Shown one piece after another: positions 7,668 to 24,990 of a stretch of DNA of 59,149 nucleotides. Source of the stretch: an uncultured Verrucomicrobia subdivision 3 bacterium (lineage in GTDB: Bacteria > Verrucomicrobiota > Verrucomicrobiia > Limisphaerales > UBA11358). The stretch spans positions 1 through 59,149 of the forward strand of contig CAILMI010000015.1 in assembly GCA_903835255.1 (NCBI GenBank), given 5' to 3'. Numbering within the stretch: position 1 is the stretch's first letter; every line of letters begins with the position of its first letter. Under the pieces are notes generated by a model, which was not told the DNA's origin, searched no databases, and saw nothing but the letters and a program-made list of their open reading frames with translations. The position numbers and the translations under genes are program-made.

Positions 7668-8153
7668 ATGAATTTCCGCGCAAAAATTATCGGCTGGGAT
7701 GAACTCCCGACCTGGCGTCAGGCCCTGCGCGCGGCGGGCAAAAAACTGGTCGTCACCAACGGCTGCTTCGACCTGCTGCATCTCGGCCATGTCACCTACT
7801 TGGAGAAGGCGCGCAACTTTGGCGATGCCCTGCTCATCGGCGTGAACAGCGACGCAGCCGTGCGCGCGTTGAAAGGCGCGGCACGCCCGGTGAATTCCGA
7901 GACCGACCGTGCGGCAGTATTGGCATCGCTGCAAAGCGTGGACGGCGTCTGCATTTTCGCCGATACGGCGGCGACGCGGTTTCTCGCCGCCGCCGCGCCA
8001 GACCTCTACGTCAAGGGCGGCGACTACACGCTGGAGACGCTGAACCAGGACGAGCGACGCGCGGTTGAGTCGGCGGGCGGCAAGATTGTGCTGGTGCCGT
8101 TTGTGCCGGGCAAATCCACGACGTCGCTGCTGGAGAAAATTTCGCGGCTGTGA
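7668..8153 (+). CDS. rfaE2: D-glycero-beta-D-manno-heptose 1-phosphate adenylyltransferase (RfaE2-type)
   Basis: Transfers AMP from ATP to heptose 1-phosphate, making ADP-heptose for LPS inner core. The 161 residues are the stand-alone cytidylyltransferase-like half of HldE. The nucleotide-binding signature is TNGCFDLLHLGHVTYL, with HxGH, and later YVKGGDY and VPFVPGKSTTSLLEKI. The kinase half (HldE1) is not in the window. It overlaps the downstream glycosyltransferase by 4 bp (GTGA), so the two are almost certainly co-transcribed. It sits beside the leftward heptose operon. Confidence 0.88.
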   Translation: MNFRAKIIGWDELPTWRQALRAAGKKLVVTNGCFDLLHLGHVTYLEKARNFGDALLIGVNSDAAVRALKGAARPVNSETDRAAVLASLQSVDGVCIFADTAATRFLAAAAPDLYVKGGDYTLETLNQDERRAVESAGGKIVLVPFVPGKSTTSLLEKISRL

Positions 8154-9214
8154 AGATCCTCGTCATTTCTCTGGCCGGCATCGGCGACACGCTGATTGCC
8201 ACGCCGCTCCTGCATGAACTGCGTCTGAATTTTCCGGAGGCGGTTATTGACGTGTTAACGATGTGGCCTGGCTCGAAGGATTTGCTGGAGGGCAATCCGC
8301 ACATCAACCGCGTATTCCAGAAAAACCTGATCCGCTGCGGCAAATGGGAAGCGGTGCGCTTTCTGTGGTCCCTGCGCCGCCACGGCTATCAACTTTCCAT
8401 CTGCACCCATCCGCAAAGCCGCATCCATTACCGCGTGGCAGCCTGGCTCGCGGGCGCAGGCGTCCGCATCAGCCATGAATATGAATGTTTCCGCTGGCTC
8501 GACCGCCGGCTGGCCACCGTCACCCTGCCTCAGGATTACACCCGGCATTCGATTGAGAACAATTTGGATATATTGCCGCTGATCGGCGCGCGCCGGAAAC
8601 TGGCAGCGCATGAAATGGAATTGTTCCTGAAACCGGCGGAAGAGCGTTTTGCCGAAAACTTTCTGGCCCAACCGGCGTTGTCCGGAAAAAAAATTCTCGG
8701 CCTGCATGTGGGGTCGGGCGGCACGAAGAATCTCCCCCTGAAACGCTGGCCCCTGATGCATTATGCCGAGCTCGTGCGACGGTTGAATCAAGAGCGGCCG
8801 GACCTCCGCATGCTGCTTTTTGGCGGACCGGAGGAGGGCAAAGATCATGAGATCCTGCTGTCGCAGGCGAACCGGGAACGGACGCAGGAGGCCCGGACAA
8901 AAAACCTCCGGGAAACGGCGGCCCTGATTCAGCGCTGCAGCGCCTTCCTGAGCGTGGACACGGCACTGATGCACCTCGCCGCGGCGCTGAAAGTCCCGAA
9001 CCAAATCGTCATCGAGGCCCCCACCCTCAACGTCACCAACTGGCCTTATGGAAACCCCTTCACATTGGTTCGCAACCCGCGGGTGAATGGGCGCGGGCTG
9101 GATTTCTACCGCTATGACGGAGGCGATATCCGGGGCACCCGCGAGGAGTTGATTGCCTGCATGGCGTCGGTGCAGGTTGCCGATGTCTTCGCCGCCGTGA
9201 CGAAGTTGATTTGA
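8150..9214 (+). CDS. Glycosyltransferase family 9 (heptosyltransferase-like)
   Basis: Predicted to add an ADP-activated heptose to a lipid-A-core acceptor at the cytoplasmic face. The 354 residues show the GT9 pattern: N-terminal ILVISLAGIGDTLIATPLL, a central LGLHVGSGGTKNLPLKRWP donor-site region and SVDTALMHLAAALKVP near the C-terminus. The start is GTG, overlapping the adenylyltransferase stop. It converges on the transaldolase gene, leaving 68 bp between stops. The exact acceptor cannot be read from sequence. Confidence 0.85.
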   Translation: MKILVISLAGIGDTLIATPLLHELRLNFPEAVIDVLTMWPGSKDLLEGNPHINRVFQKNLIRCGKWEAVRFLWSLRRHGYQLSICTHPQSRIHYRVAAWLAGAGVRISHEYECFRWLDRRLATVTLPQDYTRHSIENNLDILPLIGARRKLAAHEMELFLKPAEERFAENFLAQPALSGKKILGLHVGSGGTKNLPLKRWPLMHYAELVRRLNQERPDLRMLLFGGPEEGKDHEILLSQANRERTQEARTKNLRETAALIQRCSAFLSVDTALMHLAAALKVPNQIVIEAPTLNVTNWPYGNPFTLVRNPRVNGRGLDFYRYDGGDIRGTREELIACMASVQVADVFAAVTKLI

Positions 9215-9282: not shown

Positions 9283-10005
9283 CTACAGCGAAAAACCTGC
9301 CGCCCGGGCGTCCCCCGCAAACATCTTCACGGTATCCAGCGACAGTTCGGTCAAATCCATGCCCGCCATCTTGATCGCTTTGCCCAGAATATCATGCGGC
9401 ACGGTGACGATGTGAGATCCGCAGTCGTTGGCCTGGAAAATATTGAGCACTTCACGCACGCTCGCCCAAAGCAGTTCCGCCTGCGGCAGGTTTTTTAAAA
9501 TCATTTTGCTCTCGGTCATGATCCCGACCGGATCAACTCCCGTGTCGGCGATGCGTCCGGCAAAAACGGAAACGACCGCAGGGACTTTGGGATTCAATGC
9601 CGCCGTCACGCCTTCCACCTGTGCCAACGTGAGAATCGCGGTGATGTTCAGCTTCACGCCTTCGGCGGCGAGCTCTTTGATGAGCGGCAGCGCGGATTCC
9701 CCGCGCGAATTGGTGATGGGAATTTTGACGTAAACATTCTTCCCCCAGCCATTGATCTTCAATCCTTGGCGCTTCATTTCTGAAAATTCGTCCGAAAACA
9801 CTTCAAGCGACAGCGGCTTGACTGTGATGGTCTGGAGGATGTCGCGCGCGAACGCCTCGAAATCGGTCAGGCCCGCCTTGCGCATGAGCGTCGGATTGGT
9901 CGTAAGGCCCTGGATGAGCGGATTGGCGTTGAGTTCCAACATGCCTTTTTTATCCGCGCCATCGGCAAAAATTTTTACCGATAAATCTTTCAGTGTTCGC
10001 TTCAT
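9283..10005 (-). CDS. Transaldolase / fructose-6-phosphate aldolase family protein
   Basis: Class I aldolase of the small transaldolase subgroup, 240 residues. The Schiff-base lysine is expected in NVYVKIPIT, and TTNPTLMRKAG and LNITAILTLAQ are family motifs. True transaldolases interconvert sedoheptulose 7-phosphate and fructose 6-phosphate. The gene is the last of the leftward heptose operon, 4 bp after gmhB, so it may supply sedoheptulose 7-phosphate to the GmhA-like isomerase (inference). An FSA-type activity cannot be excluded from sequence alone. Confidence 0.85.
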   Translation of the reverse strand: MKRTLKDLSVKIFADGADKKGMLELNANPLIQGLTTNPTLMRKAGLTDFEAFARDILQTITVKPLSLEVFSDEFSEMKRQGLKINGWGKNVYVKIPITNSRGESALPLIKELAAEGVKLNITAILTLAQVEGVTAALNPKVPAVVSVFAGRIADTGVDPVGIMTESKMILKNLPQAELLWASVREVLNIFQANDCGSHIVTVPHDILGKAIKMAGMDLTELSLDTVKMFAGDARAAGFSL

Positions 10006-10009
10006 AAAT

Positions 10010-10549
10010 TTACTTTTTTATTTGTGACAAAATAATGTCCGCGGCCTCGGTCAAATAGCGAGCCGTAAAATCAGGCTTCTGCTTGAGCTTCTCGTCATAA
10101 TTGCCTTCGATGAAAACCGTCCGGCAGCCCGCCGCGTGTCCACAGTCCACATCGCGCCAACGATCGCCGACCATCCAGCTTTGCGCAAGATCAATGCCCA
10201 GCGCCTTCGCCGCGTTGAGCAACATCCCCGGCTTGGGCTTGCGACAATCGCAATCCGACGCGCCGCGGCCGGGATGATAACAAACCTCGATGCGATCCAG
10301 CTCGACGACTTTTGACACTTCGGCATTCATCGCTTCCACCAGTTCGCGCGGGACAATGCCGCGGCCCACATCGGGTTGGTTGGTGGTGAGAACGAGCAAA
10401 AACCCAGCAGCTTTCAATTTCGCACACGCTTCGGGAACGCCGGGGATAATTTCAAAATCCTCCATGCTCATCGGCGGAAACGGCAAGCCGTCGCGCGTGA
10501 TAGAACGATTGACAACTCCGTCGCGGTCGAGAAATACAGCGCGCTTCAT
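10010..10549 (-). CDS. gmhB: D-glycero-D-manno-heptose 1,7-bisphosphate 7-phosphatase
   Basis: HAD-superfamily phosphatase that removes the 7-phosphate of heptose 1,7-bisphosphate. The 179-residue length is typical of GmhB. Seen are the nucleophile motif FLDRDGVVN, TTNQ, the zinc-binding CYHP...CDC cluster peculiar to GmhB, KPKPGM and the metal motif GDRWRDVD. It is located 31 bp after the gmhA-like gene and 4 bp before the transaldolase. The alpha- or beta-anomer preference, which decides between the GDP and ADP pathways, cannot be judged here. Confidence 0.9.
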   Translation of the reverse strand: MKRAVFLDRDGVVNRSITRDGLPFPPMSMEDFEIIPGVPEACAKLKAAGFLLVLTTNQPDVGRGIVPRELVEAMNAEVSKVVELDRIEVCYHPGRGASDCDCRKPKPGMLLNAAKALGIDLAQSWMVGDRWRDVDCGHAAGCRTVFIEGNYDEKLKQKPDFTARYLTEAADIILSQIKK

Positions 10550-10580: not shown

Positions 10581-11177
10581 TCACTTGGTGGATTCCCACT
10601 TCGTCTGCGCAACTTTGAGTTTCGGATGCGAAACGAGCAGATGCCAGATGACGCCCTGAAACGCCTCGCTGTGCGGTGTGATGTGCGCGGGATTGACCGT
10701 CGGCACGATGACGCACGCGGCCGCCTGCTGGGCGGTATAGCCGCCGTCGCGGCCGACAATGCCGACGACGGATGCGCCAACTGATTTGGCGACTTGAATC
10801 GCGCTGACGAGATTCGGGCTGACGTTCTTTTCCAGATTGCCGCCGCCGACAGAGAAAATCAGCAAGCCGTCCTTCGCGTTGATGCGGCTGCCTTTGAGCC
10901 ATTCTGAGAAAACCGTCGCCCAGCCTTCGTCATTGGTGCGCGCGGTAAGCTCCGACACATTGTCCGTGGGCGCGTAGGCCTCGAAGCCGCAGATCTTGCG
11001 AAAGTCATTGACGGCATGGCCGGCATTGCCCGCGCTGCCGCCGACGCCGAGAATGAAAAGGCGCCCGCCGCGTTCACGGATGGCGGCCAGCGCGTCCGCG
11101 CATTTTTCGATTGCCTGCACATCGAGCTGCGCGACCACCTGCTGGACTTCGGCTAAAAATTGTTGGGTGAAGTTCAT
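10581..11177 (-). CDS. gmhA: SIS-domain sedoheptulose 7-phosphate isomerase (GmhA-like)
   Basis: Predicted to convert sedoheptulose 7-phosphate to D-glycero-D-manno-heptose 7-phosphate. A single SIS domain spans the 198 residues. Phosphosugar-binding stretches are FILGVGGSAGNAGHAVNDF and IFSVGGGNLEKNVSP; TPHSEAFQGVIWHLLV lies near the C-terminus. Overlaps the upstream nucleotidyltransferase by 4 bp (ATGA). Family and context agree well with GmhA. Confidence 0.85.
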   Translation of the reverse strand: MNFTQQFLAEVQQVVAQLDVQAIEKCADALAAIRERGGRLFILGVGGSAGNAGHAVNDFRKICGFEAYAPTDNVSELTARTNDEGWATVFSEWLKGSRINAKDGLLIFSVGGGNLEKNVSPNLVSAIQVAKSVGASVVGIVGRDGGYTAQQAAACVIVPTVNPAHITPHSEAFQGVIWHLLVSHPKLKVAQTKWESTK

Positions 11178-11890
11178 TGTTTTTTTGATTGTAGCAATGA
11201 TTCCAATTCTGCCAAGCCTTCTGGCGAGCCCATTTCGTAGAAGCGCTCCCGCACCTCATAGCCGGCCAGCTGTTTTTCACGGACCAGCTGGCTCATGACT
11301 TCCGCCAGATCAAACGCCTGATCGGCCCCGTACGCAGCGAACACCCCTGCCCGGAACAGGCTTAAGCCATAATCAATATGACGCATCTCCGGCAGACGGA
11401 CTTTCTTGTCGTAAATTTTGATCTCATTTTCGGCGAAGACCACGTTGCTCGTGTCATAAAGACCCTCGTTGCGATAGACCGTCATCAGGCCGGGCTTGCC
11501 GCTGCGATGAAAAAATTCCGCGACGGGCTCGTATTGAATAGGCAGATACGAATCGCCGTAGAGCACGAAAAACTCCGGACCCAGCAATGGCAGGGCGCGC
11601 TTGAGGGCGCCGCCGGTGCCGAGCAATTTTTCGCCGTCGAAGGAATACTCCAGCTTAATGCCGCAGGCCTCGCCGCCGAATTCGCGCTGGATCATCTCCC
11701 CAAGATGGCCGATACAGAGGACGCAGCGACGGACTCCCTGCGCGTGGAGCATCTCGAGTTGATGCGAGAGAATCGGCCGCCCCGCGACGGGCACGAGCGA
11801 TTTTGGAATTTTTTCTGTAAGGGGACGCAGGCGCGTGGCGAGCCCACCGGCGAGAAGGGCCACGGGAATATCTGCAAGGTTCCGGCTCAT
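11174..11890 (-). CDS. hddC: Sugar-phosphate nucleotidyltransferase (HddC-like heptose-1-P guanylyltransferase)
   Basis: A 238-residue nucleotidyltransferase with the signature ALLAGGLATRLRPLTEKIPK, then GTGGALKRALPLLG and FFVLYGDSYL. The position between the HddA-like kinase and the GmhA-like isomerase, with 4-bp overlaps on both sides, points to activation of heptose 1-phosphate with a nucleotide (GTP in HddC). Nucleotide specificity cannot be read with certainty; hexose-1-phosphate substrates are possible. Confidence 0.75.
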   Translation of the reverse strand: MSRNLADIPVALLAGGLATRLRPLTEKIPKSLVPVAGRPILSHQLEMLHAQGVRRCVLCIGHLGEMIQREFGGEACGIKLEYSFDGEKLLGTGGALKRALPLLGPEFFVLYGDSYLPIQYEPVAEFFHRSGKPGLMTVYRNEGLYDTSNVVFAENEIKIYDKKVRLPEMRHIDYGLSLFRAGVFAAYGADQAFDLAEVMSQLVREKQLAGYEVRERFYEMGSPEGLAELESLLQSKKQ

Positions 11891-12867
11891 GAGATTACGA
11901 GCTTGGTCCCTTCAAAATCGAAGCGGAAGCGCACCTCCTTCAAGCCCGCCGTGCGCATGGCGTGGCGCAACCGGGCCTTGTCCTCCGCGTAAAACATCAG
12001 GAATCCGCCCCCGCCCGCGCCGATGAGCTTACCGCCGAGCGCTCCGCTGGCCAGCGCGAGGTCATACCACTCGTTGATCTTGGGATTGCTCATGCCGCCG
12101 CTGCGCTGTTTTTTGCGCTGCCAGTGCACATCCATCAGCCGCGCGAACTCTTGCAGATTGTCGCTTTCGAGCGCCGCCTGGCTTTGGAGCCCCAGGTCTT
12201 TGACAAAATGGAGGTTTTCGATCATGGCTCGGTCATCCGATTTCGACTTCTGATCCTGCTCCTTCAAAATTGCCGAGGCGCTGCGCGAGTAACCGGTGAA
12301 AAAGAGCAGCAGATTGTCCTCCAGATTGTCGCGCGTCTCCTCGGAAACTTTCAGAGGCCACGCCTCCACCCTGCCGTCGGGCAGAAAATTGAAGCAGGTC
12401 AACCCGCCGTAGGCCGCAATGTATTGGTCCTGCTTCCCTATCGGCTCCCGCAACCGGTTTAACTCGATGTCGCAGGCCTGGGCCGCCAGTTCCGCGGGGT
12501 GAACCAGGTTTCTCTTGTGCGCATGCAGCGCTTTCAGCAGGGCCGTCGTGAAACTGCCGGACGAGCCGAGGCCCGTGCCGGAGGGGATGTCCGCCATCGA
12601 GGTCAACTCAAGCGAACGCCCATCGAGTCCGGCCAATGCAAACGCCTCGCGGAAGATCGGGTGCTTCAACTGGGCCGCTTCCGGCACGCGCTCAAGCTCG
12701 GAATACTTCACGATCAGGTCCTGCACAAAGGTTTCGTGCAGGGTGATATAAACATAGCGGTCAATCGCGGCCGCGATGAGGAACCCCCCGAATTTCTCAT
12801 AATACGACGGCAAATCGGTGCCGCCGCCACCGAGGCTGATGCGCAAAGGGGACCGGGCAATAATCAT
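11887..12867 (-). CDS. hddA: GHMP-family heptose 7-phosphate kinase (HddA-like)
   Basis: A GHMP small-molecule kinase of 326 residues. The N-terminus is ARSPLRISLGGGGTDLPSYY, the ATP loop is SGTGLGSSGSFTTALLKAL and the C-terminal glycine-rich motif is LIGAGGGGFLMFYA. This arrangement is typical of D-glycero-alpha-D-manno-heptose-7-phosphate kinase, which makes the 1,7-bisphosphate in the GDP-heptose route. It overlaps genes on both sides by 4 bp. Family assignment is strong; substrate is inferred from neighbours gmhA and gmhB. Confidence 0.85.
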   Translation of the reverse strand: MIIARSPLRISLGGGGTDLPSYYEKFGGFLIAAAIDRYVYITLHETFVQDLIVKYSELERVPEAAQLKHPIFREAFALAGLDGRSLELTSMADIPSGTGLGSSGSFTTALLKALHAHKRNLVHPAELAAQACDIELNRLREPIGKQDQYIAAYGGLTCFNFLPDGRVEAWPLKVSEETRDNLEDNLLLFFTGYSRSASAILKEQDQKSKSDDRAMIENLHFVKDLGLQSQAALESDNLQEFARLMDVHWQRKKQRSGGMSNPKINEWYDLALASGALGGKLIGAGGGGFLMFYAEDKARLRHAMRTAGLKEVRFRFDFEGTKLVIS

Positions 12868-13844
12868 AAATTATTTTGGTAAATTTTTTCCACCACCCTC
12901 AAGGCCGCCGTCGCCTCCCTTAACCCGGGAACCGGACAGCGTTTCAGGCGGATATCCTCAAAAAACTCCGCCATCTCAATTTTCCAGGACTCATCGCCGC
13001 GCGGAAACTCCCAGATGGTCGTCTCCGGCGGACCCATCTGGGGCAGCATTTTATAATAGGTCAGCCGCTCAAGACCATAGCTGCCGCCAAGCCCTTCCCA
13101 GTGCAGCTTGGCATCGCGGCCGTAGATCTCAAGGCTGAACAGATTCTTCCATTCGCTGCAGCTGGCATGCAGCCAAGCGGTGTTGCCGGCGGCATTCCGC
13201 AAACTGAGAAACGCGTTATCTTCCACCGGCATGTTCCAATAATACCTCGTCGCATGCCCCTCCACCGTCGTGAATTCACCGAGAAAAATCCCGGCAAGGT
13301 CAATCAGGTGGACGCCCTGGTCAATCAACTCCCCACCGCCCGAAAGCTCCGGATTCCCCCGCCATTCTTTCTCGTAACCGGGACGGCCGCCCTGGCCGTA
13401 GCGCCCCCGCACGAACATCATCGGGCCCAGCGCCCCGCCCCGAAAAAGCTCGAGCGCTTTCAGACACGCCGGATGATAGCGGTGGTTGTAGCCGATGCGG
13501 ACCAGCGCGCCGGATTTGACGGCGGCGGCGTGGAGGGCTTCCAGTTCAGCGACGCGGATGCCACCGGGCTTTTCGATGAGAACATGCTTTCCCCTCTTCA
13601 CCGCTGCCAGGGCAATGGGCGCCAGGGTGGCATTGAGAGTCGCAACCATCACCATATCCACATGAGGCAGACTGACGGCCTGTTCAAAGGAATCCGTGGC
13701 GACACAGCCGGGGTTCTGCGCTGCGATTTTCCGGGCGCGGTCCAGTTGGGTGTCACAGGCAACCGTGACGCTGCCGGGCGGCAGCAGATTCAGCCGCTTC
13801 TGGCCAATCAGGCCGCAGCCGATGAGGGCAATGCGCAAATTCAT
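12864..13844 (-). CDS. Gfo/Idh/MocA-family oxidoreductase
   Basis: NAD(P)-dependent sugar oxidoreductase, 326 residues. The Rossmann motif ALIGCGLIGQKRL is at the N-terminus, VLIEKPGG provides the conserved EKP lysine and GGGELIDQGVHLIDLAGIF is the substrate-side signature. A much longer frame (to 14159) only reads through the upstream gene; the ATG at 13844 begins one base after the SDR stop (TGATATG). In this operon it probably oxidises or reduces a nucleotide-linked or free sugar, but the substrate is unknown. Confidence 0.85.
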   Translation of the reverse strand: MNLRIALIGCGLIGQKRLNLLPPGSVTVACDTQLDRARKIAAQNPGCVATDSFEQAVSLPHVDMVMVATLNATLAPIALAAVKRGKHVLIEKPGGIRVAELEALHAAAVKSGALVRIGYNHRYHPACLKALELFRGGALGPMMFVRGRYGQGGRPGYEKEWRGNPELSGGGELIDQGVHLIDLAGIFLGEFTTVEGHATRYYWNMPVEDNAFLSLRNAAGNTAWLHASCSEWKNLFSLEIYGRDAKLHWEGLGGSYGLERLTYYKMLPQMGPPETTIWEFPRGDESWKIEMAEFFEDIRLKRCPVPGLREATAALRVVEKIYQNNL

Positions 13845-13845
13845 A

Positions 13846-14706
13846 TCAATTCCATTTTTTGCCGCGGTCTTCCGGAACAATCCGGCGGAGACAATAGATG
13901 TCCGACCGGGCCAGCTCGTCGCGGTGCTTCTGCAAATCGTTCCAGGGATCCCATTGGGCACTGATGAGTTTGCCGGTGATGCCATCGCTTTCCGCGCTGG
14001 CGAGACACACCGCCAGATCCGCCCCCAGCTCCAACGGCACCGCCCCTTTTTCTTTCCACCCTTTGTTCTTCTCGAAAAATGCAGCGCCCACTTTTTCGGG
14101 GCCCGCCAGCAGCACCTCATCGACCAACCGGGTCGCCAGCGCGCCGGGCGCAATGGCATTCACGTCCACGTGAAACTCCCTCAATTCCTCCGCAAGCGTT
14201 TCCATCAGGCGCACGACCGCGGCTTTCGAGGCGGCGTAGGCGCTGATGTTGGGCAGCGGATTGGTCGCGCCCCCCCCGCTCAGCACGATGATCTTGCCGC
14301 GTCCAACTTTCTTAAAATGCGGAATCACCGCGCGGCACGGCAGGAGCACCCCAAACAGATTGATGTCCAGCGCCCGCCGCCAGTCGTCCAGTGAGACGGA
14401 TTCCGTCGGACCCATCGGGCCATAGACGCCCGCGTTCAGGACCAGCGCTTCGAGCGAACCGAGCTCTCTCAGCGCGAAGACGATGAGCTCGCTGACCTGC
14501 GATTCATTGGAGACGTCACAGATCCGGGCGGAAATTTTTCGCTCAGGGAACTTTGCGGCGAGCGCATCGCGGGCGGAGGTTAAATCCTTCCCGCTGCGGG
14601 CGCAGAGCACGACGTTTGCACCTTCGCGCAGGAAATGTTCCGCAATGGTTTTGCCGAGTCCCTGGCTGCCGCCAGTGACGAGCGCGTTAAGATCCTTGAG
14701 TTTCAT
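13846..14706 (-). CDS. Short-chain dehydrogenase/reductase
   Basis: Classical SDR of 286 residues. Cofactor loop ALVTGGSQGLGKTIAEHF is near the N-terminus, the active-site serine is in IIVLSGGGATN and the catalytic pair is in SAYAASKAAVV. The start at 14706 follows the upstream stop by one base (TGATATG), the same junction as at the next gene. The C-terminal 50 residues are less typical of the family. Substrate unknown; the setting suggests a sugar or nucleotide-sugar carbonyl. Confidence 0.85.
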   Translation of the reverse strand: MKLKDLNALVTGGSQGLGKTIAEHFLREGANVVLCARSGKDLTSARDALAAKFPERKISARICDVSNESQVSELIVFALRELGSLEALVLNAGVYGPMGPTESVSLDDWRRALDINLFGVLLPCRAVIPHFKKVGRGKIIVLSGGGATNPLPNISAYAASKAAVVRLMETLAEELREFHVDVNAIAPGALATRLVDEVLLAGPEKVGAAFFEKNKGWKEKGAVPLELGADLAVCLASAESDGITGKLISAQWDPWNDLQKHRDELARSDIYCLRRIVPEDRGKKWN

Positions 14707-14707
14707 A

Positions 14708-15976
14708 TCAGGCACAGCCGACGGAAAGATGCTCCACCCCGGGAATGGTTTTCAATTCCTTTTCCAGAAAACGATTGGCATCCACAAAGACCGGCCGGCG
14801 CATCAGGGGAATAATTTTTTCCCAGTCCGCCCGCCGAAACTGAGGCCATTCGGTGCACACCACCACAGCCTCCGCGCCAGCCAGCGCATCAGAAACATCG
14901 GCTGCCAGCGCGGCGGAGCCGAGTTCGGGAGGGAGCTGGCTCACCGCCGGGTCAAAGGCGGATACCGTGACGCCGGCGGCGAGCAGTTGCTGGCAAAGTT
15001 CAATCGCAGCGCTCCGGCGGAGCGTGTCGGTGTCCGGCGTGTAAGTCAGACCGAGCACGGAAATCTTTTTGCCGCGCAAATCGCCCAACCGCGATTGCAG
15101 CCGGCGGAAGGCCCAGCCGCGGTGCAGGTCGTTGCTCTGCTTGATGGCCGGGATGACACAGACCGTCTCGCCTTTGAGTTTAGCGAGTTTGGAAAGCGTC
15201 ACCACGTCCCGGGCCAGCGTGCCTCCGGCGAACGCTCCCCCCGGCCCGAGATAGGCCTTGGGACCAATCCGCGCCTCACTCTTGAGACCCATCGAAACCT
15301 CCTTGGCATCCGCGCCCACGTGTTCGCAGAGGCGCGCGATTTCGTTGATGAAGGCGACGGAGAGGGCGAGGAACGAATTCAGCGCGTGTTTCACCATCTC
15401 CGCCGATTCAGTGCGCATGAAAATAATCTGGGCGGCGAACGGCTTGAAGAGCTGCTCGAGCAAGGGCTTTTTCGCGTCGGTGCGGATGCCGACGATGGCG
15501 CGCTCGGCTTTTTCGAAAGAGCCAATTGCCCTGCCCAGCCGGAGATTCTCCGGCGAGCTGGCAAAATGGAATTGCGGATATTCCTTTTCCAACCCGGCAC
15601 ACGTGCCGACCGGCAGCTGGGCAGAAACCAAAACCAACGTTCCCTTCGGCAGATGAGGCAGGGTTTTGCGCAGGGGAGTGAGCACTGATTCCACGTCCGA
15701 CTCGTCACTATCATTGACCGGCGTGTCGTAAGCGAGCCAGAGCACATCCGCATTGGCGCAGGCGATTTTGGGATCCGTGGTGAAGGAAAGTTTTTTGGAG
15801 GCGAGGCCGGAGGCGATGAGTTCGTTCAGTCCGGGTTCGAGCAGAGGCGCCTGACCGGCATTGAGTTGGGAAACCGTCGCGGCGTCAAAATCCAGCCCCA
15901 CCACTTCAAAATGTTTCGCGCAGCAGGCCGCCGTGACGCTGCCGAGATGCCAGAGGCCTAGGACCGTGACGTTCAT
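14708..15976 (-). CDS. UDP-glucose/GDP-mannose dehydrogenase family protein lacking the catalytic cysteine
   Basis: A 422-residue homologue of UDP-sugar 6-dehydrogenases. It has an N-terminal NAD fold (MNVTVLGLWHLGSVTAACCA), a central domain with conserved ESAEMVKHALNSFLA and a C-terminal UDP-binding domain (GKKISVLGLTYTPDTDTLR). Where active enzymes carry GFGGSCFPKD, this protein has AFAGGTLARD at 248-257, so Thr253 replaces the nucleophilic cysteine needed for the second oxidation step. It may stop at the aldehyde or do different chemistry. The ATG overlaps the epimerase stop (ATGA); a longer frame from 16015 overlaps the epimerase and is rejected. Confidence 0.82.
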   Translation of the reverse strand: MNVTVLGLWHLGSVTAACCAKHFEVVGLDFDAATVSQLNAGQAPLLEPGLNELIASGLASKKLSFTTDPKIACANADVLWLAYDTPVNDSDESDVESVLTPLRKTLPHLPKGTLVLVSAQLPVGTCAGLEKEYPQFHFASSPENLRLGRAIGSFEKAERAIVGIRTDAKKPLLEQLFKPFAAQIIFMRTESAEMVKHALNSFLALSVAFINEIARLCEHVGADAKEVSMGLKSEARIGPKAYLGPGGAFAGGTLARDVVTLSKLAKLKGETVCVIPAIKQSNDLHRGWAFRRLQSRLGDLRGKKISVLGLTYTPDTDTLRRSAAIELCQQLLAAGVTVSAFDPAVSQLPPELGSAALAADVSDALAGAEAVVVCTEWPQFRRADWEKIIPLMRRPVFVDANRFLEKELKTIPGVEHLSVGCA

Positions 15977-16947
15977 GGACGCTTTTCGTAGACCCACTGG
16001 TTCTGCTGGAGCCATTGCAGTGTGCGGCCGATGCCCTGCTCGATGGTCAGTGAGGTTTTCCAGCCGGTGGCCTGGATTTTTTGCGTGTCGAGGAAGATGA
16101 ACGGATTGTCGCCGACCCAGCCGCGCGCGCCGCCGGTGTATTCCAGCTGCGGGTTCAAGCCGAGCGCGCCGCAGATGTGGCCGACGGAGTCGTTGACCTG
16201 CACGTATTCCGGCGTGCCGAGATTATAGATTTCAACGCCATGTTTGGCACGCTGCGCCGTGCCCTGACCGATAACCTGGAGCATGGCATTCACGCAATCC
16301 TGGACGTAGAGATAACTTTTCCGCTGTTTGCCGTCGCCAAGGATTTTCAGGCGGCCGGGATGTTCGAGCAGCTGTTGGTAAAAATCAAAAATATGCCCGT
16401 GCGTGTAGCGCTCGCCCAGAATAGAGACAAAACGGAAAATGTAGCCCTCAAACTTGAATCCCTCGCAGTAGGAGGAAATCATGCCCTCTCCGGAAACTTT
16501 GGACGCCGCATAGAGCGAGGTCTGCACCGGAAACGGCGCGTCCTCCGGCGTGGGAATCACGGCCGCTTCCCCATAGACGCTGCCGGTGGAGCTGAAGGCG
16601 ATGCGGCGGACGCCGTTGGTGCGCATGGCCTCGAGCACATTGAAGGTGGCGACGGTGTTTTGCTGCAAATCTTTCGAGGGATGCTCGAGCCCGAAGCGGA
16701 CATCCGCATTGGCAGCGAGATGAAAAACCGTGTCGCAACCCGCCATCGCGCGGGTCAGCGCCGGCAAGTCCAGATTATCCCCTTCCGCCAGCTTGAAATT
16801 CTTGTTCCGCAACGCACCGTCGAGAAACCGTCTCTGCCCGGTGGAAAAATTGTCCCAGCCGACCACGGTTTTTCCGTCCGCCAGCAATCGGTCCACGAGG
16901 GTGCTGCCGATAAAACCAGCGGCGCCGGTGACAAAAATAGCCTTCAT
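15973..16947 (-). CDS. NAD-dependent epimerase/dehydratase (UDP-glucose 4-epimerase-like)
   Basis: Extended SDR of 324 residues acting on a nucleotide sugar. The cofactor motif is FVTGAAGFIGSTLVDRLL, the serine lies in FSSTGSVYGEA and the catalytic Tyr/Lys in SLYAASKVSGEGM. It is the first gene of the leftward nine-gene operon that runs to 9283. The 80 bp upstream of it should hold the operon promoter, though no strong consensus is visible. Substrate probably a UDP-hexose or UDP-uronate (inference). Confidence 0.87.
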   Translation of the reverse strand: MKAIFVTGAAGFIGSTLVDRLLADGKTVVGWDNFSTGQRRFLDGALRNKNFKLAEGDNLDLPALTRAMAGCDTVFHLAANADVRFGLEHPSKDLQQNTVATFNVLEAMRTNGVRRIAFSSTGSVYGEAAVIPTPEDAPFPVQTSLYAASKVSGEGMISSYCEGFKFEGYIFRFVSILGERYTHGHIFDFYQQLLEHPGRLKILGDGKQRKSYLYVQDCVNAMLQVIGQGTAQRAKHGVEIYNLGTPEYVQVNDSVGHICGALGLNPQLEYTGGARGWVGDNPFIFLDTQKIQATGWKTSLTIEQGIGRTLQWLQQNQWVYEKRP

Positions 16948-19623: not shown

Positions 19624-20490
19624 TCACTGCTTTGCCCCTGGCGCCCACGCGGCATTATCCAGAAGTTGAATTCCGGGCTTGAGAAAGGCAATCCTGCGGC
19701 TCTTGTAAAGTTTCCCCAGCGCCTGCTTGAACGCTTTTTTGCTCACGCCAAACGCCGACCGGACGGCAGCAGGGGTGCTGTCATCATCAAAAGCGAGTTT
19801 GCCGCCACCCGCCTGCAGGGCCTCGACAATCTGATGGGTCAGGGGCGCGACGCGTTTGTAGCCAGAGGCGTCCAGACTCAGATCGATCTTGCCGCCGGGC
19901 CGCACCGTGCGCACAAAACCTTTCAGCTTCTGTCCCGTCTTCAAGGCTGCAGCCAGCCCGCTGTGATAGAGCAGACCGCGGTGGGCATTCTCCACGATGG
20001 CGTTGTAGCCGAGCGGCGTTTTGCCAGTGACCAGCAGATTCACGGGCTGACCATCCCGATAGGCGGCGGGCTCTCGGTTGAGGTGCCGGTTCAGCCGCGT
20101 GCTGGCGAGGATGCGGTTGGTGGTCAGATCCAGGCACACGTAGACCATCGCCCAATCGCCGGTGCGCAGGGGGAATTCCTGCTCCCGGAACGGTACCAGC
20201 AAATCCTTCTGCAACCCCCAATCCAGAAAGGCGCCGACCTGCGGATGCAGGCTGATCACCTTCATATAGGCAAATTCACCGACCATCGCGTGAGGCGTTT
20301 CAGTGGTGGCGACAAGGCGATCTTCGGAATCGCGATACACAAACACATCCATCTTGTCCTTCTGCGCCAGGTTGGCCGGGATGTAACGGCCCGGCAGCAG
20401 GATTTCGCCGAGCTCGCCCCCGTCGAGGTAGAGGCCGGGACTCGATTCCCGGATGACGGAGAGCAGATTGCGTTTGCCGAGGATTGCCAT
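19624..20490 (-). CDS. S1-domain RNA-binding protein (CvfB/YitL-like)
   Basis: A 288-residue protein with tandem S1-like OB folds and a C-terminal winged helix, as in CvfB. Seen are GLYLDGGELGEILLPGRYIP, GAFLDWGLQKDLLVPFREQE, GFVRTVRPGGKIDLSL and a C-terminal FGVSKKAFKQALGKLYKSRR. Family members bind RNA and influence expression post-transcriptionally; the precise role here is unknown. Upstream ATGs (to 20646) give a proline/arginine-rich extension not found in the family, so 20490 is taken. Divergent from the rhamnosidase gene. Confidence 0.85.
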   Translation of the reverse strand: MAILGKRNLLSVIRESSPGLYLDGGELGEILLPGRYIPANLAQKDKMDVFVYRDSEDRLVATTETPHAMVGEFAYMKVISLHPQVGAFLDWGLQKDLLVPFREQEFPLRTGDWAMVYVCLDLTTNRILASTRLNRHLNREPAAYRDGQPVNLLVTGKTPLGYNAIVENAHRGLLYHSGLAAALKTGQKLKGFVRTVRPGGKIDLSLDASGYKRVAPLTHQIVEALQAGGGKLAFDDDSTPAAVRSAFGVSKKAFKQALGKLYKSRRIAFLKPGIQLLDNAAWAPGAKQ

Positions 20491-20698
20491 AGGGGCACAG
20501 GATAAACCCATCCCCCCCGCCATCGGGAGAGAATTCGTCAGGCGCCAGGGGCAATCCAGGGAACGCACCGCCCGCGGAAGCGGCGGCGGAGCGGGGCGGC
20601 CCCGCATTTTGCGCAAAAAAATTGGCAATTTTCCCAAACTCGCCACTCGTCAGCCTGCGGGCAAAACGGTAAATTTTTCAGGCAAAATTATCCCGCTT

Positions 20699-23600
20699 AT
20701 GACCCGTATTGAGCTTTTTCCTCTCCTGCGTTTGTGTCTGTTTCTCGCCGCCAGCCTGTCTTTGGGGGCCGCCCCGAGCGTGGACGCGCTGCGCTGCGAA
20801 CAATTGGTCAATCCCCAGGGCATCGACGTGGCGCAACCCCGCCTGAGCTGGACGCTTCAGTCCCGTCAGCGCGGCGTGAAACAAACCGCCTACCAGATTC
20901 TCGTGGCCACCAGCGAAGCGGGCCTGAAATCCGGGAGGCCGGATTTATGGGACAGCGGCAAAGTTTCCTCTGATGAATCAGTGCTCGTCCCTTATGGCGG
21001 CCAACCCCTGAAGGCACGGACCCCTTGTTTCTGGAAGGTCCGGGTGTGGGACGGCGGCGGGAAACCGGGCGACTGGAGCCCGCCCGCCCAGTGGACCATG
21101 GGACTTCTGGCCGCCAGCGACTGGCAGGGGAATTGGATCGGGCAGGATGGCGTGGAGACCCCTCAGCTTCTCACCGGCACCTCGTGGATCTGGTCGGAGG
21201 AGGCCCGCGTGGAGACCAATTATTTCCGGCGGGTGGTGACGATTCCCGCCGGCCGCAAGATCCGGCGCGCCATTTTTGAATACACCGGCGACAACGAATG
21301 CCGCGGCTGGATTGATGGGTACGACCTGGGCGCGCGGAATAATTTCAAGACCGTCAAATGGAACAACATCACCACGCGGCTCGAACCCGGCAGCACCTAT
21401 GTCTTTGGATTCACCGGCCGGCATGAGGCTTCCGGACAAAACCCCGCCGGCATCATCGGCAAGCTGACGGTGGAGTTCACGGCCGGCGAGCCGCTGATCA
21501 TCCCGACGGACGAAACCTGGAAGGTCTCCCAGCAGCCGGAACTGGGCTGGAATACCGCCGGCTTTGATGATTCCAAGTGGGGGACGCCGAAAATTCTCGG
21601 CCCGGCGGAAATGACGCCATGGACCAATCCCCGTTCGGCGGAAAGCCGCCGCCAGCCCGCACGCTATCTCCGAAAAGAATTCGCCGTGGATAAAAAGATT
21701 TCCCGCGCCACGGTTTCTTTCTGCGGACTCGGCCTGTCCGAGCTGTATGTGAACGGAAACAAAATCGGCGACGCCGTGCTGTCCCCCGCCTTGGCCCAAT
21801 ACGACCAGCGCCAGTTTTATGTCACCCATGACATCACCCAAAATCTCCAGCGCGGTGAAAATGCACTGGGCGTGATCCTGGGCAACGGACGATTCTATGC
21901 CGGTCGCAGCAAAACTTACGCTGGCACGGTGAGCTTCGGCTTTCCCAAATTGCTCCTGAATTTGCGGATCGAATACGCCGACGGCACCCGCAAGGATATT
22001 GTCAGTGATAGCTCCTGGAAGCTCACGATGGACGGCCCCCTGCTTGCCAACAACGAGTTTGACGGCGAAGAATACGATGCGCGAAAAGAATTCCCAAACT
22101 GGAGCAATCCTGGCTTTGATGATTCCCAATGGCCTGCCGCCCAGATCGTCTCCGCCCCGGGCGGCGAGCTCTCCGCCGAGATGCAGCCGCCCCTCCGCGT
22201 CACCGGCACACTCAAGCCGATTTCTGTCCGGGAACTCCAGCCGGGGGTTTTCATCTATGACCTCGGCCAGAACATGGTCGGCTGGTGCCGGCTCCATGTT
22301 TCCGGCGAAGCGGGCGACCGCGTGATATTGCGGCATGCCGAGACCTTGAAGCCGGACGGCTCGCTCTACATGGCCAACCTGCGCGGTGCGGAGGTCACGG
22401 ACAGTTACACGCTCAAAGGCGGCGGCAAGGAAACCTGGGAGCCCCGCTTCATCACGCACGGTTTTCGTTTTGTGGAAGTCTCGAGCGTGCCCGCCCACAA
22501 CCCGCCCCGCTTTCCTGCAATCGCCCTCGAAGGCCGCGTGGTGAACGACGACCTGCCGAGCGCTGGAGAGTTTGTTTGCTCGAATGAATTGATCAACCGC
22601 ATCTACACCAATATCGTCTGGGGCACGCGCGGTAATTACCGGAGCATCCCCACCGACTGCCCGCAGCGCGACGAACGCCAGGGCTGGCTTGGCGACCGCT
22701 CCGAGGAATGCAAGGGAGAGGCCTACCTCTTCGACATCTCCGCTCTTTATACGAAGTGGCGCCGGGACATGAGCGATGCGCAACGCACCAACGGCGTCCT
22801 CCCCGACGTCGCGCCCGCTTACTGGCCGATCTATTCGGACAACGTCACCTGGCCCAGCAGCGCCATCATCATTCCCAGCGCGTTGGAGCGCCAATACGGC
22901 GACCGGCTCTGCTTGGGGCGCGATTACGCGAGCGCTAAACTCTGGATGGATCACATGCTGACCCTGGCGAAGGACCATCTCCTGTCCAAAGACAACTACG
23001 GCGACTGGTGCGTGCCGCCGGAGGAGGCCAAATTAATCCACTCCAAAGACCCAGCGCGCCAGACCGATAAGACACTGCTCGCCACCTCGTATTTTTATTA
23101 CGACCTCTGCCTGATGGAGAAATACGCCCGGCAACTCGGAAAGACGGATGATGCCATGCGCTGGAAACAGTTGGGGGACGCTTTCAAAACCGCCTTTAAT
23201 GAAAAATTCCTCGATCGCGAGAAGGGGCAATACTCCAACGGCACGCAGACTTCCTGCGTGCTGCCCTTGGCATTCGGACTGGTGCCGGACGACATGAAGA
23301 AAACGATTTTTGCGACGCTGGTGGCCAACATTGAAAACGTGACCCAGGGCCACATCGGCACCGGATTGATCGGCGGACAATACCTGAACCGGGTTCTCTC
23401 CGATAATGGTCGAGCGGATCTGTGCTACACCATCGCATCACAAAAAGATTATCCGAGCTGGGGCTATATGGTGGAACAGGGAGCAACCACCATCTGGGAG
23501 CTCTGGAACGGCAACACCGCCGACCCCACAATGAACTCCGGCAATCACGTGATGCTCGTCGGCGACCTCGTGGTCTGGCTCTATGAATATCTCGCCGGCA

Positions 23601-23881
23601 TCGCGCCGGCGTCGCCCGGCTTCAAAACTATTATGATGAAACCCATGCCCGTCGGGGACCTCACCTTTGTGAAAGCCACGCATCACTCCCCCTACGGCTG
23701 GATCTCCAGCGAATGGCACAAGAACGGACACACGTTCGACTGGCAGGTTGTGATTCCGGCAAACACCACGGCGACACTCATCGTGCCAGCTGAAAAACTG
23801 GGTCGCATCACCTGCAACGGAAAAATAGAATCTTCCCCGCTCGAGCTTGGCAGCGGCAAATACCATATTGTTAGCGAATGA
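20699..23881 (+). CDS. Secreted alpha-L-rhamnosidase, GH78
   Basis: Hydrolyses terminal alpha-L-rhamnose from rhamnogalacturonan or rhamnosides. The 1060 residues start with a signal peptide (cleavage after LSLGAA). Then come an N-terminal Ig-like domain (DALRCEQLVNPQGID...PRLSW), beta-sandwich domains, and an (alpha/alpha)6 barrel. The barrel carries the GH78 signature TDCPQRDERQGWLGDRSEEC and YMVEQGATTIWELWNG, followed by a C-terminal beta domain. A longer frame from 20453 runs antisense through the divergent gene's 5' end and is rejected. Its stop overlaps the next ATG by 4 bp. Confidence 0.93.
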   Translation: MTRIELFPLLRLCLFLAASLSLGAAPSVDALRCEQLVNPQGIDVAQPRLSWTLQSRQRGVKQTAYQILVATSEAGLKSGRPDLWDSGKVSSDESVLVPYGGQPLKARTPCFWKVRVWDGGGKPGDWSPPAQWTMGLLAASDWQGNWIGQDGVETPQLLTGTSWIWSEEARVETNYFRRVVTIPAGRKIRRAIFEYTGDNECRGWIDGYDLGARNNFKTVKWNNITTRLEPGSTYVFGFTGRHEASGQNPAGIIGKLTVEFTAGEPLIIPTDETWKVSQQPELGWNTAGFDDSKWGTPKILGPAEMTPWTNPRSAESRRQPARYLRKEFAVDKKISRATVSFCGLGLSELYVNGNKIGDAVLSPALAQYDQRQFYVTHDITQNLQRGENALGVILGNGRFYAGRSKTYAGTVSFGFPKLLLNLRIEYADGTRKDIVSDSSWKLTMDGPLLANNEFDGEEYDARKEFPNWSNPGFDDSQWPAAQIVSAPGGELSAEMQPPLRVTGTLKPISVRELQPGVFIYDLGQNMVGWCRLHVSGEAGDRVILRHAETLKPDGSLYMANLRGAEVTDSYTLKGGGKETWEPRFITHGFRFVEVSSVPAHNPPRFPAIALEGRVVNDDLPSAGEFVCSNELINRIYTNIVWGTRGNYRSIPTDCPQRDERQGWLGDRSEECKGEAYLFDISALYTKWRRDMSDAQRTNGVLPDVAPAYWPIYSDNVTWPSSAIIIPSALERQYGDRLCLGRDYASAKLWMDHMLTLAKDHLLSKDNYGDWCVPPEEAKLIHSKDPARQTDKTLLATSYFYYDLCLMEKYARQLGKTDDAMRWKQLGDAFKTAFNEKFLDREKGQYSNGTQTSCVLPLAFGLVPDDMKKTIFATLVANIENVTQGHIGTGLIGGQYLNRVLSDNGRADLCYTIASQKDYPSWGYMVEQGATTIWELWNGNTADPTMNSGNHVMLVGDLVVWLYEYLAGIAPASPGFKTIMMKPMPVGDLTFVKATHHSPYGWISSEWHKNGHTFDWQVVIPANTTATLIVPAEKLGRITCNGKIESSPLELGSGKYHIVSE

Positions 23882-24990
23882 AACCCACATTATTCATCAC
23901 CGGTGTCCTGATGGCCCCCCTGCTCGCGGGCAGTTTTGGCTGCGCGTCTGCGCCCCCGGTAAAGTCGGCCGCCGTTTTGAAATCAGAATTTATTTTTGAA
24001 TCCGCGCCCTTCCCCTCCTGTCACGCCTCTACCGTGGCGGAGACGCCGTCGGGCCTGGTAGCCGCATGGTTTGGCGGCACCGCCGAACGCAACCCCGACG
24101 TGTGCATCTACATTTCGAGAACTGTGAATGGCCAATGGACGCCGCCGGTCGCCGTGGCGGATGGCGTCGGCTTCGCCACCGACCGCCTGCCGACCTGGAA
24201 TCCGGTCTTGTTCCAGCCAAAGCACGGCCCATTGATGCTGTTCTACAAGGTGGGGCCCAGCCCCGCGACGTGGTGGGGCATGATGACCACTTCCGATGAT
24301 GGCGGCCAAACTTGGGCCCGACCCACCCGCCTGCCCAAGGGCATACTGGGCCCCATCAAAAACAAGCCGGTGGAGCTGGCGAACGGCGACATCCTCTCCC
24401 CCAGCAGTACCGAAGGCAAAGGGGGCTGGCAGGTGCATTTTGAACGCAGCGCCGACGGCGGCCAAACCTGGAGCGCCACACCGCCGGTGAATGATGGCAA
24501 AACGATCAGCGCGATTCAGCCGAGCATTTTGATCCAGCCGGATGGAAGGCTGCTATCCATCGGCCGCACCCAGAATAACAAGCTCTTTGAGATCGGATCC
24601 GGCGATGGCGGGAAAACCTGGGGCCCGATGGCTCTGCTGGAATTGCCCAACCCCAATTCCGGAACCGATGCCGTGACGCTCCGCGACGGCCGCCAGCTGC
24701 TCGTTTATAACCACAACCTCCGCACCGGCTCGAACAACAAGGGCCGCAGCCCACTCAATGTCGCGGTTTCTGCCGATGGAAAAAACTGGGGTGCCGCCTT
24801 AGTTTTGGAGGATGCTCCGAATGCCCCCGCCGGCTTTGCGTATCCCGCCGTCATCCAGTCCCGCGACGGCCTGGTACATATCACCTATACCTGGGAACGC
24901 CAGCGCATCAAACACGTTGTCGTGGATCCGGCCAAACTGACCTTGCGCCCGATTCAAAACGGCATCTGGCCCAAGTCAATTTCAGATTGA
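23878..24990 (+). CDS. BNR-repeat sialidase-like lipoprotein
   Basis: A six-bladed beta-propeller of the exo-alpha-sialidase-like (BNR) family, 370 residues. The signal peptide ends in a lipobox-like AGSFGC, so it is probably outer-membrane or periplasm anchored. Asp-box motifs are visible: SDDGGQTWA, SADGGQTWS and GDGGKTWG. SGLVAAWFGGTAERNPDVCI near the N-terminus is typical of this bacterial subgroup. The pairing with the GH78 gene (ATGA overlap) suggests a plant-glycan rather than a sialic-acid substrate (inference). Its end overlaps the convergent transporter gene by 9 bp. Confidence 0.8.
   Translation: MKPTLFITGVLMAPLLAGSFGCASAPPVKSAAVLKSEFIFESAPFPSCHASTVAETPSGLVAAWFGGTAERNPDVCIYISRTVNGQWTPPVAVADGVGFATDRLPTWNPVLFQPKHGPLMLFYKVGPSPATWWGMMTTSDDGGQTWARPTRLPKGILGPIKNKPVELANGDILSPSSTEGKGGWQVHFERSADGGQTWSATPPVNDGKTISAIQPSILIQPDGRLLSIGRTQNNKLFEIGSGDGGKTWGPMALLELPNPNSGTDAVTLRDGRQLLVYNHNLRTGSNNKGRSPLNVAVSADGKNWGAALVLEDAPNAPAGFAYPAVIQSRDGLVHITYTWERQRIKHVVVDPAKLTLRPIQNGIWPKSISD

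What the first reader, a model, noticed from the sequence alone, without database searches (positions are those of the whole stretch)
14708..15976. UDP-sugar dehydrogenase homologue with Thr in place of the catalytic cysteine
The active-site motif GFGGSCFPKD is AFAGGTLARD here, while the Lys/Asn positions in MVKHALNSFLA are kept. Without the thiol the usual four-electron oxidation to a uronate should fail, though a single oxidation to the aldehyde is possible. Its place between an epimerase, SDR and Gfo/Idh gene suggests a new nucleotide-sugar branch.
Basis: partly seen in the sequence, partly recalled or inferred. Interest (0 to 1): 0.6.

Follow-up and report, generated by a model that had tools for sequence, protein, structure and literature searches.

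The report
Cysteine-free UGDH-like enzyme, octose-type operon
A sugar-oxidising enzyme that has lost the cysteine its textbook relatives need is one of a large, old and intact family that sits in a conserved operon very like the one Streptomyces uses to build the eight-carbon sugar of lincomycin, so it most likely turns a secondary alcohol into a ketone rather than making a sugar acid.

Summary
It encodes a 422-aa UGDH-superfamily protein with Thr253 at the catalytic Cys position. This is not a lesion. All 43 relatives in the clade have Thr, written with four codons, and the gene is under purifying selection. The clade is monophyletic (100/99) against Cys-bearing UGDHs, one of which the same genome also encodes. 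Residues used in the first oxidation (Lys196, Asn200, Asp257) are kept, as are Arg236 and Glu143. Those tied to the second oxidation (Cys276, Thr131 and Tyr10 of known UGDHs) are all replaced.

The neighbourhood is a conserved nine-gene operon in Verrucomicrobiota, Lawsonia and Rhizobium plasmids, and viral contigs: epimerase, UGDx, SDR, Gfo/Idh, GHMP kinase, nucleotidyltransferase, SIS isomerase, HAD phosphatase, transaldolase. This matches the lincomycin GDP-octose pathway (LmbM, L, Z, P, O, N, K, R), with an SDR where LmbS would be. The transaldolase and SIS genes occur in exactly the same 33 of 387 genomes. My reading: UGDx oxidises the secondary C6-OH of an NDP-octose (less likely NDP-heptose) to a ketone. 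That needs no thiol and yields no aldehyde or uronate. The sugar's size, the reaction and LmbL's active site were not testable here.

The parts
14708..15976 (-). UGDx: Cys-free UGDH-superfamily dehydrogenase, 422 aa, Thr253 at the Cys position (codon 15220-15218)
15973..16947 (-). EPI: NAD-dependent epimerase/dehydratase family (LmbM-type role); YAASK motif present; its 3' end overlaps the UGDx start by 4 bases
13846..14715 (-). SDR: classical short-chain dehydrogenase, YAASK motif; stands where lincomycin has an aminotransferase
12864..13844 (-). GFO: Gfo/Idh/MocA oxidoreductase (LmbZ/CcbZ-type role); EKP motif present
11887..12867 (-). GHMP kinase, HddA-like (LmbP-type role)
11174..11890 (-). 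sugar-1-phosphate nucleotidyltransferase, MurU/HddC-like (LmbO-type role)
10581..11177 (-). SIS-domain ketose-phosphate isomerase, distant from GmhA (47 bits against a cut-off of 209) (LmbN-type role)
10010..10549 (-). HAD-IIIA phosphatase, GmhB-like (LmbK-type role)
9283..10005 (-). small transaldolase, TIGR02134 (305 bits, cut-off 282), a second transaldolase of this genome (LmbR-type role)
7668..9214 (+). neighbours on the other strand: HldE C-terminal-type nucleotidyltransferase (7668-8153) and GT9-like glycosyltransferase (8150-9214); linked to the operon in many relatives

Best explanation
UGDx is an NAD-dependent C6 oxidoreductase of an NDP-activated higher-carbon sugar, most likely GDP-octose. 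The operon would run as follows. Transaldolase plus SIS isomerase make an octose 8-phosphate; GHMP kinase, HAD phosphatase and nucleotidyltransferase turn it into an NDP-octose; EPI, UGDx and Gfo/Idh then edit it, and the SDR reduces a keto intermediate where lincomycin's LmbS would aminate it. In an octose (or heptose) C6 bears a secondary OH, so UGDx takes two electrons and stops at a 6-ketone. It needs neither the Cys thioester nor a second NAD turnover, which explains the coordinated loss of the Cys276, Thr131 and Tyr10 equivalents with the Lys220, Asn224 and Asp280 equivalents kept. The ketone may then be used for epimerisation or 6,8-dehydration. Shown here: the sequence facts, clade, selection and operon conservation. 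Inferred: substrate, C6 ketone and product.
For: Thr in 43 of 43 clade members against Cys in 18 of 18 others; Glu143, Lys196, Asn200, Arg236 and Asp257 conserved in both; clade-fixed changes W9G, H10Y, Q120T, S141N, N144F, A250G, G252S, T253C, L254F, A255P, R256K (UGDx/canonical). One clade, 100/99; purifying selection. UGDH roles of Cys276, Asp280, Lys220 and Thr131 (PMC3184952). Same operon in subdivision-3 loci, 14 further Verrucomicrobiota genomes plus Lawsonia and two Rhizobium plasmids and viral contigs. Lincomycin gene roles (PMC4351081); LmbM, LmbL, CcbZ and CcbS convert GDP-octose to GDP-lincosamide (PMC12945683); LmbR makes octulose phosphate from R5P (PMC5854111). Transaldolase and SIS in the identical 33 of 387 genomes; all 15 UGDx genomes among them. 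This genome has a separate transaldolase, a separate GmhA-like SIS protein and a canonical Cys UGDH.
Against: No LmbL or other Lmb sequence was reachable, so kinship to LmbL and its active site are untested; the match is by gene content. The kinase, phosphatase and transferase models hit include heptose models, so a C7 product is not excluded. 18 of the 33 transaldolase+SIS genomes lack UGDx, and several of those keep EPI, SDR and Gfo/Idh, so UGDx is not indispensable to the pathway. The Rossmann GxGxxG is GLWHLG, so NAD binding itself is inferred. The structure model has pLDDT below 50 across residues 236-256 and cannot show the active site.
Confidence: 0.62

Rival explanations
1. Same chemistry (C6 secondary alcohol to ketone, two electrons) but on an NDP-heptose: the operon is a GDP-heptose pathway of the HddA/GmhB/HddC kind with extra editing enzymes, and the transaldolase merely supplies sedoheptulose 7-phosphate.
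For: Kinase, phosphatase and isomerase best match heptose models or solved heptose enzymes, and HddC is among the transferase's best models; HldE-type and GT9 genes lie next door.
Against: The genome already has another transaldolase and a GmhA-like isomerase. A transaldolase tied one-to-one to the SIS gene in 33 of 33 genomes is not needed for ordinary sedoheptulose 7-phosphate. The operon SIS scores 47 bits on gmhA against 174 for the second copy.
Confidence: 0.22
2. One reading: a Cys-less dehydrogenase that oxidises a primary C6 alcohol (or a terminal one) once and releases an aldehyde.
For: Lys196, Asn200 and Asp257 are kept, enough for a first hydride transfer.
Against: Operon content points to a sugar whose C6 is secondary. 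In human UGDH the C276A variant does not complete the reaction from UDP-glucose (PMC3184952).
Confidence: 0.07
3. Thr253 acts as an alternative nucleophile (hemiacetal/ester) and the enzyme still makes a uronate.
For: C276S of human UGDH builds up a covalent adduct (PMC3184952); Thr is invariant here.
Against: Thr131 and Tyr10 equivalents are replaced too; the Ser variant stalls rather than turning over.
Confidence: 0.04
4. UGDx is a non-catalytic pseudoenzyme or scaffold.
For: Catalytic Cys and the central Gly of GxGxxG are gone.
Against: Five other active-site residues are conserved in the 43 bacterial members and dN is far below dS.
Confidence: 0.05

Closest known systems
Lincomycin/celesticetin octose pathway (LmbR, N, P, K, O, M, L, Z, S), in particular LmbL ('C8 dehydrogenase')
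   Same: Same set of enzyme types: transaldolase, isomerase, kinase, phosphatase, guanylyltransferase-type enzyme, epimerase, dehydrogenase, second oxidoreductase (PMC4351081).
   Different: An SDR replaces the aminotransferase LmbS; found in Gram-negative bacteria and viral contigs beside glycosyltransferases, not in an antibiotic cluster; sequence kinship to LmbL not tested.
UDP-glucose 6-dehydrogenase (PDB 3gg2, 4a7p, BceC 2y0e, human UGDH)
   Same: Three-domain fold, about 31% identity to the closest, conserved Glu, Lys, Asn, Arg and Asp of the active site.
   Different: Cys, Thr131, Tyr10 and the SCFPKD loop replaced; GxGYVG is GLWHLG; separate clade.
GDP-D-glycero-alpha-D-manno-heptose pathway (GmhA, HddA, GmhB, HddC)
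   Same: Isomerase, kinase, phosphatase and nucleotidyltransferase of the same superfamilies.
   Different: Dedicated transaldolase and four extra oxidoreductases or epimerases; SIS far from GmhA.
PHROG phrog_9148 'UDP-glucose dehydrogenase'
   Same: Matches viral UGDx homologues, including shortened ones.
   Different: Annotated as UDP-glucose dehydrogenase although the members seen here lack the Cys.

Membership tests
UDP-glucose/GDP-mannose dehydrogenase superfamily (PF03721, PF00984, PF03720; TIGR03026) | All three domains over the curated cut-offs | tested here: met
   best folds are UGDH structures
UDP-glucose 6-dehydrogenase (four-electron NDP-sugar dehydrogenases) | Catalytic Cys in GGSCFPKD | tested here: not met
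   Thr253 here and in all 43 clade members
UDP-glucose 6-dehydrogenase (four-electron NDP-sugar dehydrogenases) | Lys220, Asn224, Asp280 and Glu161 (human numbering) | tested here: met
   Lys196, Asn200, Asp257, Glu143 conserved
UDP-glucose 6-dehydrogenase (four-electron NDP-sugar dehydrogenases) | GxGYVG dinucleotide-binding motif and Thr131 | tested here: not met
   GLWHLG and Gln120
LmbL-type C8 dehydrogenase | Sequence clade with LmbL/CcbL | not testable with these tools
   no Lmb sequence in the reachable collections; a Streptomyces locus could not be used as a search centre
Lincosamide-type NDP-octose pathway | Linked transaldolase, SIS isomerase, GHMP kinase, HAD phosphatase, nucleotidyltransferase, epimerase, UGDH-like and Gfo/Idh genes | tested here: met
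   roles from PMC4351081
Lincosamide-type NDP-octose pathway | Aminotransferase LmbS | tested here: not met
   none in the operon; an SDR stands there
Lincosamide-type NDP-octose pathway | Eight-carbon product | not testable with these tools
   needs enzymology; indirect support from transaldolase/SIS co-occurrence
GDP-heptose pathway (GmhA) | SIS protein over the gmhA cut-off | tested here: not met
   47 bits against 209; the genome's other SIS protein scores 174, also below the cut-off but far closer

The most novel reading that the evidence does not exclude
Gram-negative bacteria (Verrucomicrobiota, Lawsonia, rhizobia) and some phages make a previously unrecognised NDP-octose, probably for surface glycans, by a lincosamide-like pathway in which a UGDH-fold enzyme without cysteine acts as a C6 ketone former (perhaps a redox-neutral epimerase or 6,8-dehydratase).
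Probability: 0.42. Interest if true: 0.75.

Novelty: new variant of a known kind. Interest (0 to 1): 0.6.

Why it matters
If right, a large clade now annotated 'UDP-glucose dehydrogenase' or 'nucleotide sugar dehydrogenase' does not make uronates, and eight-carbon sugar biosynthesis, known to me in this form only from lincosamide antibiotics, is a recurrent trait of Verrucomicrobiota and also occurs in an animal gut pathogen, rhizobia and phages. It shows how the UGDH fold can be re-purposed from a two-step acid former to a one-step ketone former by losing the residues of the second half-reaction. It gives an exact, testable substrate prediction.

Tried and rejected
The 2020 PNAS paper on LmbM/L/CcbZ/CcbS and the two JACS papers are not held. 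Looked for an aminotransferase in the clusters that lack the SDR (L071, L073): none recognised from the ORF starts; L073 has an extra GDP-mannose-dehydratase-like protein instead. AlphaFold model with 11 sequences: fold right, but the active-site stretch is of low confidence, so no geometry was used. Rejected: sequencing error, pseudogene or chance; another Cys taking the place; simple heptose supply as the likely role of the transaldolase. Terminase search on the viral contigs found nothing with one Pfam family, which is uninformative.

Full report
What is there. The finding is real but lies on the minus strand. Reading 15976 to 14708 gives a 422-residue protein with all three domains of the UDP-glucose/GDP-mannose dehydrogenase superfamily. 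The best solved relatives are UGDHs such as 4a7p and 3gg2 at about 31% identity. The loop GGSCFPKD is AGGTLARD, an ungapped alignment that puts Thr253 (codon ACG at 15220-15218) where the catalytic Cys should be. No other cysteine aligns there.

It is a family trait. Close relatives came from 27 loci in species-level genomes (mostly Verrucomicrobia subdivision 3), more from a 387-genome survey of the phylum, and others from Lawsonia intracellularis and two Rhizobium plasmids. Aligned with canonical homologues, 43 sequences have Thr and 18 have Cys. The Thr is written with all four Thr codons, and dN is far below dS. An IQ-TREE phylogeny of 32 sequences puts all Thr proteins on one side of a single branch with support 100/99. 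The same genome has an ordinary Cys-bearing UGDH elsewhere (G000:C55).

Which residues changed. Conserved in both groups are Glu143, Lys196, Asn200, Arg236 and Asp257 (human Glu161, Lys220, Asn224, Arg260, Asp280; the numbering correspondence is from my own knowledge plus PMC3184952). In that paper Asp280 holds the water that starts the first oxidation, Lys220 stabilises charge, Cys276 forms the thiohemiacetal and thioester, and Thr131 is proposed to shield the intermediate while NADH is exchanged for a second NAD. In this clade Cys is Thr, Thr131 is Gln120, and the Tyr of GxGYVG is His10. PDB entries 2y0c to 2y0e concern that Tyr ('BceC and the final step of UGDs reaction'). So the changes that I can assign a role fall on the second half of the UGDH reaction, while the first-oxidation residues stay. 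This inference is mine. Also fixed are Trp9 in place of the central Gly of GxGxxG, and SPEN for NPEF.

The operon. In the window the gene order is epimerase (EPI), UGDx, SDR, Gfo/Idh, GHMP kinase, nucleotidyltransferase, SIS isomerase, HAD phosphatase, transaldolase, mostly overlapping or nearly so. The same set recurs in most fetched loci long enough to show it, in 14 further Verrucomicrobiota genomes with varied gene order (L071 and L073 lack the SDR), on Lawsonia plasmid 3 and on two Rhizobium plasmids. Such a set is not needed for a uronate. It matches, type by type, the amino-sugar genes of lincomycin: LmbR transaldolase, LmbN isomerase, LmbP kinase, LmbK phosphatase, LmbO guanylyltransferase, LmbM epimerase, LmbL dehydrogenase, LmbZ oxidoreductase (PMC4351081). 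The exception is LmbS, the aminotransferase, where this operon has an SDR. LmbM, LmbL, CcbZ and CcbS together turn GDP-octose into GDP-lincosamide (PMC12945683). From memory, unverified here, the 2020 PNAS paper lists 6-epimerisation, 6,8-dehydration, 4-epimerisation and 6-transamination as the steps.

Seven or eight carbons. LmbR uses ribose 5-phosphate as acceptor and makes octulose phosphate (PMC5854111). In the 387-genome survey the operon's transaldolase and SIS gene occur in exactly the same 33 genomes (Fisher p = 1.4e-48, not corrected for shared ancestry), and all 15 UGDx-positive genomes are among them. This genome has a second transaldolase and a second SIS protein that scores 174 bits on gmhA, against 47 for the operon's. 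A pathway drawing on ordinary sedoheptulose 7-phosphate would need neither extra copy. I therefore favour C8, without proof; the heptose reading stays open.

Mechanism. UGDH oxidises C6. In an octose or heptose, C6 is a secondary alcohol, so oxidation stops at a ketone after two electrons. No thiohemiacetal, thioester, hydrolysis or second NAD is needed, which fits the pattern of lost and kept residues. The 6-ketone would serve epimerisation, dehydration toward C8, or reduction by the SDR. Shown: sequence, clade, selection, operon conservation, co-occurrence. Inferred: substrate, position and product. Against: 18 of the 33 core-positive genomes have no UGDx at the threshold used, and some of those still keep EPI, SDR and Gfo/Idh, so UGDx gives one branch of products rather than being essential to all.

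Use of the product. Relatives carry nearby GT2 and GtrA-like genes (Rhizobium L077), GT2 (L060, L068), a weak PMT_2-like membrane protein (L072) and GT9-like genes (L107, L108, L111), which points to surface glycans. This is circumstantial.

Viral relatives. A scan of IMG/VR found relatives in 12 viral contigs. L089 and L090 keep nearly the whole pathway. L091-L098 carry a 245-248-residue form that ends before the C-terminal domain, usually next to an SDR; L099 and L100 have other short forms. L100 lies beside head protease, major head and tail genes, so at least that one is phage-borne.

Verdict. The best description is a new variant of a known kind: a UGDH-fold enzyme re-purposed in a lincosamide-like octose pathway.

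Noticed in passing
L091-L098 (8001-8744 in L091, L098), L099 7887-8609, L100 7950-8600: Viral contigs encode shortened UGDx proteins (216-248 aa) without the C-terminal NDP-binding domain; GLWHLG has become GHGHLA and AGGTLARD has become TNDTLGRE in L091, L097 and L098, while SPENLR and SAEMVKHALN stay; in L091-L096 and L098 an SDR follows.
   Followed up: partly
L089 7031-13951; L090 5434-12343: Viral-classified contigs (GC 29% and 24%) with almost the whole octose-type pathway among glycosyltransferase-like genes.
   Followed up: partly
L076 (Lawsonia intracellularis PHE/MN1-00 plasmid 3, NC_008014.1): The full operon, including UGDx with AFSGGTLARD, lies on a plasmid of an intracellular gut bacterium with GT2, ABC-transporter and rfbC genes, annotated only as generic sugar enzymes.
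   Followed up: partly
L107-L109, L111: Clusters with transaldolase, SIS, kinase, transferase, Gfo/Idh, SDR and EPI but no UGDx; L107, L108 and L111 have a GT9-like gene beside EPI, and L109 has a second kinase/transferase/SIS set downstream.
   Followed up: no
window 10581-11177 (-): The SIS isomerase has lost GmhA-like motifs (the TSGxS stretch reads VGGGN), while the genome's second SIS protein (L082 1453-2025) keeps them.
   Followed up: partly
window 20453-24990 (+): Beyond the operon lie a large alpha-L-rhamnosidase-like protein and a sialidase/BNR-repeat-like protein, judged by eye from the translation.
   Followed up: no
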